A stretch of DNA of 64,000 nt, taken from contig NZ_ANMO01000272.1 in the NCBI RefSeq assembly GCF_000338295.1, positions 1 through 64,000 on the forward strand, in the 5' to 3' direction. The translations under genes and the position numbers were made by a program. A model generated the notes under the pieces. The model was not told the DNA's origin, searched no databases, and saw nothing but the letters and a program-made list of their open reading frames with translations. The DNA comes from Rhodopirellula europaea 6C. GTDB taxonomy: Bacteria > Planctomycetota > Planctomycetia > Pirellulales > Pirellulaceae. Below are positions 17,967 through 20,788 of the stretch, piece by piece (the stretch's first letter is position 1; each line of letters opens with the position of its first letter).

Positions 17967-19193
17967 ATGTCGATCAAACGTGTCGGAATCCTCACCGCCG
18001 GTGGCTTGGCCCCGTGTCTGTCGTCGGCCATCGGAGCCCTGATTGAAGCCTATACAGAGCAAGCTCCTGAAATTGAAATTGTCTGCTACCGATCCGGGTA
18101 CAAAGGTTTGCTGCTCGGCGACAGCTTTGTCGTCGACGACCACTCGCGGAAGAACGCGGCGATCTTGCACCAGCACGGCGGCAGCCCCATCGGCAACAGC
18201 CGGGTCAAGCTGACCAACGTCGCCGATTGTGTGAAACGCGGTTTGGTCAGCGAAGGCCAAGACCCACTGCAGGTTGCCGCGGAGCGATTGCAATCGGACG
18301 AAGTCGATGTGTTGCACACCATCGGTGGCGACGACACCAACACCACCGCCGCAGACTTGGCCGCTTACTTGGCCAAGCACGAATACCAACTGACGGTCGT
18401 TGGTTTGCCCAAGACCATCGACAACGACGTCATCCCCATCAAACAGAGCTTGGGTGCTTGGACGGCCGCCGAAGAAGGCGCCAAGTTCTTTGAAAATGTG
18501 GTCGGCGAACACAACGCCAACCCACGCATGTTGATTGTTCACGAAGTCATGGGGCGCAACTGTGGTTGGTTGACCGCCGCCACCGCAGCCAAATATCGCG
18601 AACGATTGCAGACGCTCAACTTCTTGCCCGAGATGGGACTCAGCCAAGAACGTCGCGACGTGCACGGTGTCTTTGTTCCCGAGATGAGTTTTGATCTCGA
18701 AGAAGAAGCCAAACGCCTGCGGGCAATCATGGACGAGATCGATTGCGTCAACATTTTCATCTCCGAAGGTGCCGGCGTCGACACCATCGTCAAGGAAATG
18801 GAATCGCGTGGCGAAAGCGTCCCCAAAGATGCATTCGGTCACTACAAACTCGACGCCGTGAACCCCGGCAAATGGTTCGGTAAACAATTCGCGGACATGC
18901 TGGGTGCCGAGAAAACGCTCGTGCAAAAGAGCGGTTACTTCAGTCGCGCCGCTGCCGCCAATGCGGACGACATCGCCTTGATCGGTCGCTGTGCCAAGAA
19001 GGCCGTCGAATGTGCCATGCGAGGGATCGGTGGCGTGGTTGGCGAAGACGAAGACCAAAACAACGAACTTCGCGCGATCGAGTTTGAACGCATCGCTGGC
19101 GGCAAACCTTTCGACATCAACGTGGACTGGTTTGGTGACTTGCTTTCACAGATGGGACAACCCAAAGGCGAAGTCCTGGAAACGTCTCACTAA
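17967..19193 (+). CDS. pfp: Pyrophosphate-dependent 6-phosphofructokinase
   Basis: Phosphorylates fructose 6-phosphate, probably with pyrophosphate, in a reversible glycolytic/gluconeogenic step. The 408-residue product has the PFK fold motifs GILTAGGLAPCLS (7-19), IGGDDTNT (119-126) and LPKTIDND (147-154). The second Asp of GGDD replaces the Gly of ATP-dependent enzymes (GGDGS), and the Lys in PKTIDND is the other marker of PPi-dependent enzymes. The first loop reads APC where many relatives have APG. Its stop codon overlaps that of the convergent acyltransferase gene by 2 bases (19191-19192). It begins about 155 bp after the inverted-repeat element, which may therefore sit near its promoter. 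Confidence 0.9.
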   Translation: MSIKRVGILTAGGLAPCLSSAIGALIEAYTEQAPEIEIVCYRSGYKGLLLGDSFVVDDHSRKNAAILHQHGGSPIGNSRVKLTNVADCVKRGLVSEGQDPLQVAAERLQSDEVDVLHTIGGDDTNTTAADLAAYLAKHEYQLTVVGLPKTIDNDVIPIKQSLGAWTAAEEGAKFFENVVGEHNANPRMLIVHEVMGRNCGWLTAATAAKYRERLQTLNFLPEMGLSQERRDVHGVFVPEMSFDLEEEAKRLRAIMDEIDCVNIFISEGAGVDTIVKEMESRGESVPKDAFGHYKLDAVNPGKWFGKQFADMLGAEKTLVQKSGYFSRAAAANADDIALIGRCAKKAVECAMRGIGGVVGEDEDQNNELRAIEFERIAGGKPFDINVDWFGDLLSQMGQPKGEVLETSH

Positions 19194-20788
19194 CGAACTA
19201 GCTGAGCAGCAACGACTTCCGAGCCGGGCACGTCATTCGTGCTCGGCTCGTTCGCGTTTGGCACGGTTGATTTTCGTTTACCGTTGAGCAACCATCCGAT
19301 CGGTGTGTAGCGAACGAAGACTTGGTAGCTGATCAACAACACCACACAGGAGATCGCACTGACGACCGCGAATTTGACGCTCCAAGAGGCCTGCCAATCT
19401 CGTACCCAGTACTGCAAAAACATCACCAGGGGAAGGTGAACGAGGTACAACCAGTAGCTCGAATCGGACAGGTACCGCAGCGTGCGACTGGGATGTGCGA
19501 ACACACTTCGAAACATCCCCATCATGCCGAAGGACACGATCCAGGCATAAGCGGATTGAACCAACACGGACGCGAACAATCCGCTGCCCGACGTTTGGCT
19601 CTTCAGCATCCATCCGATCGCGAGCAAGACGGTGAGCGACAACGGCAAACTGATCTTCCATCCGCGACCCAGGCGACCTTCGCGATCATCCGCGACAAAG
19701 TAGATCGCACCAAAGCCAAAGAACAACGCGTAGTACGCCAACACAGACGGGAGAGGAAGCAAGCCGACCGATGTCGCCGGCCCAAAGCCTTCGTGCCGCA
19801 TGAACCACTGAGTCAACATCGTCAGCGGAATCAACCAGAGCAAACAATGGGGTGAACTTGCCAGCGCCGACGCATTCCAGCGAGACTTCAGCGATTGCGG
19901 CGTGCCTGTCATGACGATCACGAACCCCGCCACCAAGAAGCACAGAAACCAAAGAAACCACAGGTGCCCCGTCGCTGGAAACTCGAACAGCAGAAACATC
20001 AATCCGCTCCAGTTCGCGGCACTCATGCCTCCGTCAGCAGCCTGGTCCGCTGGTGACTCAAACAACGTGACGCCCATCATCGCAGCGATTTCTTCCCGCC
20101 CGGATTCGACGTCGTCCCGATCGACTTCGATTTTTAGCAATCCAGCGACGTACTCGGTTGTTCCCCACGGCGCTCGCATCACATCGATGGGTTGCTCGCC
20201 CTTGTGGTTCCCTAGCTCAGGATCTGCGTCGTGATCCAGCAACACCTTGGCAATGTCATCGCGTCCCAGGAACGCTGCCACCAAGAAGGGCGAATCACCT
20301 TGCTCGGACCGTTGATTGACATCGGCGCCTGCCAGCAAAGCTTTTTCCACTGCCACCAAGTCATCCTGAACAACGGGAGTCAACAGATCGGTTTCGTTGA
20401 ACGCCGTGGCATTGGCCGATGGATTGGCCTGAATATGGCCGGCCACAATCCAGATCGATGGAACGATGGTGCACATCCCGATCACGAACGGAATCGCGAT
20501 TCGCAGCACGCGGTGCTCAATCAATTTGGATGTTCCGCGACGCTGATAAAGCATCATCGTGAAAAAGCCGCTGAGCAGAAAGAACAACGGCATTCGAAAG
20601 CCATGCACCATCGCAATGAACATCGAAACAAAATCGCTGCTTTGCGAATCTTGGATCGGCCAACCGCGGCCCGCATCGGGCGAATAAGCGATGGCTGCAT
20701 GCAAGAAAATCCCCAGCAACATCGCGATGCCTCGCAACGCATCCAAGTCATGTCGTCGAGACGGGATCGCAGTCATTGAATCATTCAT
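19190..20788 (-). CDS. Acyltransferase-3 membrane protein with inserted ankyrin repeats
   Basis: A membrane acyltransferase of the OafA/NodX type, expected to O-acylate a sugar or lipid from a cytoplasmic acyl donor. The ATG at 20788 is chosen because a GAGGAAAG site lies just upstream and the protein then starts close to the family motif LDALRGIAMLLGIFLHAAIA (15-34, with likely catalytic H30). The usual ten or so membrane helices are split by a hydrophilic stretch of about 130 residues after the third helix. About 135-222 of it reads as two to three ankyrin repeats (VVQDDLVAVEKALLAGADVN, DSPFLVAAFLGRDDIAKVLL, HDADPELGNHKGEQPIDVM). The second helix block begins at WSGLMFLLFEF (about 260). 532 residues in total. 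Confidence 0.82.
   Translation of the reverse strand: MNDSMTAIPSRRHDLDALRGIAMLLGIFLHAAIAYSPDAGRGWPIQDSQSSDFVSMFIAMVHGFRMPLFFLLSGFFTMMLYQRRGTSKLIEHRVLRIAIPFVIGMCTIVPSIWIVAGHIQANPSANATAFNETDLLTPVVQDDLVAVEKALLAGADVNQRSEQGDSPFLVAAFLGRDDIAKVLLDHDADPELGNHKGEQPIDVMRAPWGTTEYVAGLLKIEVDRDDVESGREEIAAMMGVTLFESPADQAADGGMSAANWSGLMFLLFEFPATGHLWFLWFLCFLVAGFVIVMTGTPQSLKSRWNASALASSPHCLLWLIPLTMLTQWFMRHEGFGPATSVGLLPLPSVLAYYALFFGFGAIYFVADDREGRLGRGWKISLPLSLTVLLAIGWMLKSQTSGSGLFASVLVQSAYAWIVSFGMMGMFRSVFAHPSRTLRYLSDSSYWLYLVHLPLVMFLQYWVRDWQASWSVKFAVVSAISCVVLLISYQVFVRYTPIGWLLNGKRKSTVPNANEPSTNDVPGSEVVAAQLVR

What the first reader, a model, noticed from the sequence alone, without database searches (positions are those of the whole stretch)
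19190..20788. Ankyrin repeats inserted into an acyltransferase-3 membrane protein
Residues about 135-222 (between hydrophobic helices three and four) read as ankyrin-like repeats (ALLAGADVN, AAFLGRDDIAKVLLDHDADP). Acyltransferase-3 proteins often carry SGNH or other C-terminal domains, but an ankyrin insertion in the middle of the membrane domain is not something I know of. It could gate the enzyme or recruit a protein partner.
Basis: partly seen in the sequence, partly recalled or inferred. Interest (0 to 1): 0.7.

Follow-up and report, generated by a model that had tools for sequence, protein, structure and literature searches.

The report
Acyltransferase with inserted ankyrin domain
A bacterial membrane enzyme of the kind that passes acyl groups outward carries a small ankyrin domain built into the loop over its outer pore mouth; the relatives checked share this layout, which suggests, but does not yet show, that a partner or ligand docks there.

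Summary
On the MINUS strand, window 19190-20788 encodes a 532-residue acyltransferase-3 (AT3) protein with three ankyrin repeats (about 136-217) and a conserved helical cap (to about 238) between TM helices 3 and 4. It is not a chimera: orthologues in 5 same-genus genomes keep it, and the insert is under purifying selection as strong as the catalytic TM1-3 half. The layout marks a subfamily: 81 of 81 aligned members carry both domains (56 of the 80 relatives are labelled Planctomycetota). Among hits of a TM4-10-only profile, 32 of 32 close relatives that keep the loop have ankyrin repeats; 0 of 19 more distant AT3s examined do. Motifs, charge and fellow carriers put the insert in the periplasm, in the loop that published modelling of OafB says controls its acyl-CoA channel. 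The ankyrin+cap unit recurs in exported-looking proteins (CotH, beta-propeller, lipoprotein-like, anti-sigma-like), some encoded next door. Best reading: an extracytoplasmic docking lid that recruits an acceptor or partner and gates acyl transfer. Architecture is near certain; mechanism is inference; acyl group and acceptor are unknown.

The parts
19190..20788 (-). Whole gene: AT3 acyltransferase with ankyrin+cap insert, 532 aa from ATG (a TTG start would give 565 aa)
20435..20761 (-). TM helices 1-3 (residues 10-118) with D16xxR19x10H30 and R93xxR96, motifs of the acyl-CoA site
   Evidence: D16, R19, H30, R93 in 81 of 81 and R96 in 80 of 81 rows; motif roles from PMC9833829 and PMC12423673, passages
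20138..20383 (-). Three ankyrin repeats (residues 136-217) in the TM3-TM4 loop
   Evidence: Pfam (one repeat over cut-off), AlphaFold2 helices, Ank_2 in 81 of 81 members
20075..20182 (-). Conserved cap of the insert (residues 203-238, overlapping the last repeat's second helix); G230 in 88% and R231 in 95% of 81 rows
   Evidence: same cap in CotH-domain and beta-propeller proteins
20009..20071 (-). Less confident, less constrained linker (residues 240-260) back to the membrane domain
   Evidence: pLDDT block means 64 at 241-260; omega 0.18-0.64 in 6 of 8 pairs where defined
19274..20008 (-). TM helices 4-10 (residues 261-505), with G360 and S441xxxY445
   Evidence: invariant in 81 rows; helices

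Best explanation
This is an AT3 (TmAT superfamily) transmembrane acyltransferase, with its known active-site motifs intact, whose periplasmic TMH3-4 loop, the pore lid in models of OafB, holds a three-repeat ankyrin domain closed by a family-specific cap. SHOWN: the chain holds both domains; the insert is predicted with confidence to fold as ankyrin repeats; the acyl-CoA-site residues are kept; the layout is conserved across many genomes; the insert is under strong purifying selection. STRONGLY INFERRED: the insert faces the periplasm. INFERRED: acyl-CoA enters from the cytosol, and the ankyrin+cap lid over the outer pore mouth binds an extracytoplasmic partner (an acceptor protein or glycan carrier, or another ankyrin+cap protein), so that binding places the acceptor and/or moves the lid. 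This would parallel the role of the fused SGNH domain in OafB-type enzymes. The acyl group and the acceptor are not known.
For: Both Pfam domains in 81 of 81. With a TM4-10 profile (A3): 33 hits of 184 bits or more beyond the window; 32 of 32 that keep the loop have ankyrin repeats (31, L209), the 33rd (L155) being a 256-aa contig fragment without the loop; 0 of 19 other AT3s examined have them (17 by Pfam; 2 by a family repeat profile). Loop length 166-245 aa in 81 rows against 22-51 aa in 16 non-Ank AT3s. Structure pLDDT 89.9, pTM 0.87. Omega of ankyrin+cap 0.03-0.13 (7 of 8 pairs defined) against 0.04-0.12 for TM1-3 (6 of 8) and 0.09-0.18 for TM4-10 (8 of 8). Side: R93xxR96 heads TM3, the cytoplasmic face in OafB (PMC9833829, passages); TM2-3 loop net charge at least +4 in 81 of 81, insert net negative in 71 of 81. 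Other carriers of the unit look exported or membrane-anchored. Lid: PMC9833829 Fig. [quoted passage not shown] Neighbours: 9 of 80 loci have an adjacent or near non-AT3 gene with ankyrin+cap.
Against: No partner, acceptor or acyl group is identified; neighbours in the window genus (PFK, a Metallophos protein, an M24 peptidase) say nothing about substrate. The gate in OafB is itself a modelling and simulation result. 10 of 81 inserts are not net negative. Of the 9 loci with ankyrin+cap neighbours two pairs are near-copies (L042/L043, L054/L058), leaving 7. A3 was built only from ankyrin-bearing members, so its high scorers lean towards that subfamily. I had no model coordinates, so contact between cap and pore mouth was not measured. 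Foldseek's best PDB hits were DARPins with probability 1.00 but E only 3.8e-3, none at 1e-3. Some dS values are above 1, so omega is rough.
Confidence: 0.5

Rival explanations
1. The ankyrin domain binds the glycan or other acceptor itself and does no gating: a substrate-binding module like the periplasmic parts of AT3-SGNH enzymes.
For: Position at the outer face; the review PMC9558356 (passages) says periplasmic sequence unique to AT3-SGNH proteins seems to restrict acceptor choice.
Against: Ankyrin repeats mostly bind proteins (recalled, no call); the same cap sits on proteins as different as CotH, beta-propeller and anti-sigma-like ones, which need not share an acceptor.
Confidence: 0.2
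2. Signal input: the enzyme is regulated through, or takes part in, an envelope circuit (ECF sigma, kinase or anti-sigma), the ankyrin+cap units sensing a common periplasmic ligand.
For: A kinase-family gene lies directly upstream on the same strand in 16 of 80 loci (one BLAST cluster; Pfam Pkinase in the 3 tested, L041, L050, L097), and a sigma-factor gene one further in 8 of these (one BLAST cluster; L066 tested, Sigma70_ECF). Sigma gene - anti-sigma-like protein with ankyrin+cap - AT3-Ank in L042, L043, L048, L060.
Against: Not found at most of the 80 loci nor at the window; ECF-kinase pairs are common in planctomycetes (recalled).
Confidence: 0.2
3. A structural spacer: the insert only stabilises the outer loop and binds nothing.
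For: Repeat number and linkers vary (loop 166-245 aa; two units in L121 and L125).
Against: Purifying selection on ankyrin+cap as strong as on TM1-3; conserved cap residues; cap reused elsewhere.
Confidence: 0.08
4. Opposite topology: the insert is cytoplasmic and works like ordinary intracellular ankyrin adaptors.
For: Many known bacterial ankyrin proteins act in a cytosol (recalled).
Against: RxxR and charge pattern; other carriers with CxxCH motifs, a lipobox or signal-like N-termini (judged by eye).
Confidence: 0.03

Closest known systems
AT3-SGNH enzymes (OafB, OafA, OatA; PF01757 + SGNH)
   Same: AT3 core motifs DxxRx10H, RxxR, TMH6 Gly, SxxxY (motifs from PMC9833829 and PMC12423673, passages); an extra extracytoplasmic domain
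   Different: SGNH is C-terminal after an 11th helix and takes part in transfer (passages); here ankyrin+cap is inserted in the TMH3-4 loop and Pfam shows no SGNH
OpgC/MdoC (NF003014) and AT3-only proteins
   Same: Best NCBIfam hit, E 4.1e-42
   Different: 144.7 bits against a cut-off of 338, so not that equivalog; 16 AT3-only proteins of related genomes have TM3-4 loops of 22-51 aa
HGSNAT and CASD1 (TmAT superfamily), VanT, NRF-AT3 proteins
   Same: Other TmAT proteins with extra domains (PMC12423673 and PMC9558356, passages)
   Different: Their extra domains are of other kinds; 'ankyrin' occurs 0 times in the main text of the three AT3/TmAT papers searched
Ankyrin-repeat proteins / DARPins
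   Same: Repeat consensus and predicted fold
   Different: Inserted within a polytopic membrane enzyme, probably periplasmic, and closed by a cap that no Pfam model matched at E <= 1 in P0001

Membership tests
AT3 / PF01757 (TmAT superfamily) | Profile match over its cut-off | tested here: met
   E 1.9e-38, 132.8 bits against 31
AT3 / PF01757 (TmAT superfamily) | DxxRx10H in TMH1, RxxR in TMH3 | tested here: met
   D16, R19, H30, R93 in 81 of 81, R96 in 80 of 81
AT3 / PF01757 (TmAT superfamily) | TMH6 Gly and TMH9 SxxxY | tested here: met
   G360, S441, Y445 invariant in 81 rows; their assignment to TMH6 and TMH9 is mine from the helix list
AT3 / PF01757 (TmAT superfamily) | Ten TM helices | tested here: met
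   My count from the AlphaFold2 helix list, where TM2 and TM3 run together in the DSSP line
AT3 / PF01757 (TmAT superfamily) | Acyl transfer to an extracytoplasmic acceptor | not testable with these tools
   needs an assay
Ankyrin repeat | Repeat profile over cut-off | tested here: met
   PF00023 23.7 against 21.1 bits, one repeat; Ank_2 at 22.9 is under its 27.3 cut-off in P0001 but matches 81 of 81 members at E <= 1e-3
Ankyrin repeat | Stacked helix-pair fold | tested here: met
   Predicted only: AlphaFold2; Foldseek best hits DARPins, probability 1.00, E 3.8e-3
AT3-SGNH | C-terminal SGNH domain | tested here: not met
   no SGNH match in Pfam at E <= 1
OpgC/MdoC equivalog NF003014 | Curated cut-off 338 bits | tested here: not met
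   144.7 bits

The most novel reading that the evidence does not exclude
Ankyrin+cap is a mobile periplasmic docking module of planctomycetes and some other phyla: an anti-sigma-like protein, beta-propeller/CxxCH proteins, CotH proteins, lipoproteins and this acyltransferase carry it to meet one another or one shared ligand, and in the acyltransferase the module is the ligand-gated lid of the acyl-CoA pore.
Probability: 0.2. Interest if true: 0.82.

Novelty: new variant of a known kind. Interest (0 to 1): 0.62.

Why it matters
The AT3 review (PMC9558356, passages) asks how AT3-only proteins work without an SGNH domain and whether a partner protein is required. Here an AT3 subfamily has a recognisable binding domain built into the loop thought to open the pore. 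That gives a handle: use the ankyrin domain as bait to find the partner, and delete or swap it to test gating. It also points to an ankyrin+cap module shared by several envelope proteins, mostly of planctomycetes, whose roles are unknown to me.

Tried and rejected
Chimera or misassembly: rejected. Disordered loop: rejected by the model. Chance ankyrin-like match: rejected by 81 of 81 members and by the TM4-10 profile test. The first genome-contig scan, with the single protein, found nothing (27 pattern matches, none confirmed); the alignment A1 was used next. Tree: 59 Ank and 16 non-Ank rows (75 picked from about 130 at hand), one change of state, fitting one origin, but the separating branch has SH-aLRT support of only 42 and several outgroup branches are very long, so single origin is not shown. 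Solved structures by sequence for TM4-10: none at E <= 1. Promoter scan: 0 promoters, terminators at chance level. Window-genus neighbours gave no functional clue. The cap profile built from AT3 members alone found CotH caps but not beta-propeller caps; hhalign on four caps that I cut by pattern, three of them short, joined them (probability 90%, E 1.4e-6, one comparison of my own choosing). Six other AT3 loci at hand (L002, L025, L027, L031, L113, L116) were left out of the alignment; of these L002 was scanned later (no ankyrin).

Literature: searches. In (20 of 46 papers listed; 4 of 4; 20 of 77; none found; 14 of 14; 1 of 1) no listed title is about ankyrin within an AT3 protein; these papers were not opened. 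Only one open-licence library was searched. Pfam and InterPro architecture listings were not available, so the bare domain combination may be listed there.

Full report
WHAT IS THERE. Window 19190-20788 on the minus strand encodes a 532-aa protein, P0001. Pfam finds Acyl_transf_3 (1.9e-38) in two stretches and an ankyrin match: PF00023 at 164-193, 23.7 bits over a cut-off of 21.1, and Ank_2 at 149-218, 22.9 bits, under its cut-off of 27.3. The AlphaFold2 model, from the 81-row alignment A2, has mean pLDDT 89.9 and pTM 0.87. It shows helix pairs of three ankyrin repeats (136-152, 167-185, 200-217), a further helix 224-237, low-confidence stretches near 121-130 (68) and 241-260 (64), and a helix 255-268 before TM4. 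Foldseek against the PDB ranks DARPins first (probability 1.00, best E 3.8e-3, none at 1e-3).

IT IS A SUBFAMILY. Of 60 related genomes, 36 match P0001 at E <= 1e-3, a count that includes plain AT3 and plain ankyrin proteins. Sixteen full-length proteins were aligned (A1; truncated L010 and L020 left out); all 16 rows show the long TM3-TM4 insert by eye. Whether the other 491 carry ankyrin was not tested. All 81 rows of A2 (P0001 and the 80) match both Acyl_transf_3 and Ank_2 at E <= 1e-3. By record title the 80 loci are Planctomycetota 56, Verrucomicrobiota 12, Gemmatimonadota 3, Latescibacterota 3, Acidobacteriota 2, Poribacteria 1, Armatimonadota 1, unplaced 2. Many are MAGs and some labels look doubtful, so the phylum spread is approximate.

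INSERTION-BLIND TEST. Because A1 and A2 were found with the insert in the query, I searched 149 genomes of the phylum and 146 of the order with a profile of TM4-10 only (A3). Apart from the window there are 33 hits at 184 bits or more. All 32 that still contain the TM3-TM4 loop have ankyrin repeats (31 of the 32 scanned; L209); the one without, L155, is a 256-aa contig fragment that lacks the region. All 14 weaker hits of the two searches (128.7 bits or less) and five other AT3s were examined: none of the 19 has an ankyrin match (16 by Pfam, L002; L208 and L210 by a family repeat profile). The TM3-4 loops of the first 16 are 22-51 aa, against 166-245 aa in A2 (boundaries differ by two residues). 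So in these samples the insert marks one AT3 subfamily. A3 was built from ankyrin-bearing members only, so its top scores lean to that subfamily. A tree with the insert columns removed needs one change of state, but that branch is weakly supported (42).

SELECTION. Among six orthologues of the window genus (8 pairs), ankyrin+cap has omega 0.03-0.13 (7 pairs defined), like TM1-3 (0.04-0.12, 6 defined) and below TM4-10 in most pairs (0.09-0.18); the linker after it reaches 0.64 (some dS values exceed 1). The five other genus orthologues lie next to the same PFK gene. Of 13 genus genomes, 6 have this orthologue, G003 has a more distant AT3-Ank, and 6 have only weak matches or none.

WHICH SIDE. 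DxxRx10H (D16, R19, H30) and R93 are invariant in 81 rows and R96 in 80 of 81; G360, S441 and Y445 are invariant. In OafB the RxxR lies on the cytoplasmic face of TMH3 and the TMH3-4 loop is periplasmic (PMC9833829, passages). The TM2-3 loop is at least +4 in 81 of 81, and the insert is net negative in 71 of 81. Other proteins with the unit look exported: CotH-domain proteins (L052 and L192 with two units, L187 with one; L192 with a signal-like start), beta-propeller proteins with CxxCH motifs (L193 complete, Lactonase over cut-off; C-terminal parts in L024, L029, L032, L178, L182-L184, L186), a CxxCH protein (L176), a lipobox protein with two near-identical units (L194), a PQQ_2 protein (L034), a protein with a signal-like start and a C-terminal hydrophobic anchor (L037:8632-9285), and an anti-sigma-like protein with one likely TM helix and two units (L043, L048). 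Signal peptides, lipobox, TM anchor and CxxCH were judged by eye. 'Anti-sigma-like' rests on its place after a sigma gene and its layout; Pfam gave only ankyrin families for it. Its model (pLDDT 73.5, pTM 0.57, 7 rows) shows the same order of helices.

THE CAP. After the last repeat comes a conserved segment, about 'D-W-x-TT-x-x-IA ... V-x-x-GR-x-x-I'. A profile of this cap, from AT3 rows only, finds the CotH caps of L052, the second caps of L023 and L192, and L037's cap at i-E 7e-8 to 1.3e-9, the first caps of L023 and L192 and the cap of L176 only at 1.6e-4 to 2.8e-3, and L194 not significantly; it misses the beta-propeller caps, which hhalign joins at 90% probability. The repeat+cap profile A6 has 26 matches in 17 of 40 relative genomes at E <= 1e-10: 14 in AT3-Ank frames, 11 in nine exported-looking frames that I read, and 1 (L185) not read; in the window's own genome only P0001 passes, out of 66 first-look candidates.

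NEIGHBOURS. In 16 of 80 loci (75 have at least 1 kb upstream) a gene of one kinase cluster is directly upstream on the same strand. Pfam gives Pkinase in the 3 tested (L041, L050, L097); a kinase catalytic-loop pattern is seen in 13 of 16, not in L040, L061 (short frames at a contig end) and L106. In 8 of these a gene of one sigma cluster precedes the kinase; the one tested is Sigma70_ECF. In 9 of 80 loci a non-AT3 gene nearby carries full ankyrin+cap; all 10 neighbour frames that match A6 at E <= 1e-3 are of this kind, though ordinary ankyrin neighbours could score below that. L042/L043 and L054/L058 are near-copies, leaving 7 loci. In 4 loci a MacB/FtsX-type permease gene precedes AT3-Ank (L046, L051, L064, L065; two tested). 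The window locus has none of these.

MECHANISM. PMC9833829 (figure legend) reports from simulation that the TMH3-4 loop of OafB controls channel formation, and PMC12423673 (passages) places acyl-CoA through the membrane with the catalytic site on the extracytosolic face. An ankyrin domain in that loop most simply acts as a docking lid. Partner binding and gating are inference; acyl group and acceptor are unknown.

NOVELTY. 'Ankyrin' has 0 occurrences in the main text of the three AT3/TmAT papers searched, and the literature searches listed nothing on this architecture by title. The parts are known kinds; the insertion, the subfamily and the cap are what is new to me.

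Noticed in passing
P0001 residue 338 (window 19775-19777, minus strand): The FGPDTS motif after TM5 has Asp in 77 of 81 rows, but the window protein has Ala, as do the five same-genus orthologues; it may change substrate or chemistry.
   Followed up: no
L121:133-2271, L125:19-2163 (+): AT3-Ank proteins with what look by eye like two ankyrin+cap units in the same TM3-4 loop: the unit duplicates as a module.
   Followed up: partly
L190:589-3105 (-), L191:489-3020 (-): AT3-Ank relatives of about 840 aa with a longer ankyrin stretch in the same loop; L191 also has extra sequence before its last TM helices.
   Followed up: partly
L194:988-2121 (-): Lipoprotein-like protein with two nearly identical ankyrin+cap units, probably a recent internal duplication.
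   Followed up: no
L208:1154-3034 (+): AT3 without ankyrin, but with a long insert in a later loop instead (by eye).
   Followed up: no
L093 and L099; L085 and L103: Nearly identical AT3-Ank genes in MAGs titled with different families or phyla: mislabelled MAGs or recent transfer.
   Followed up: no
window 17967-19193 (+): The convergent PFK gene overlaps the last bases of the AT3-Ank gene (19190-19193); the two genes are also neighbours in the five genus orthologues.
   Followed up: partly
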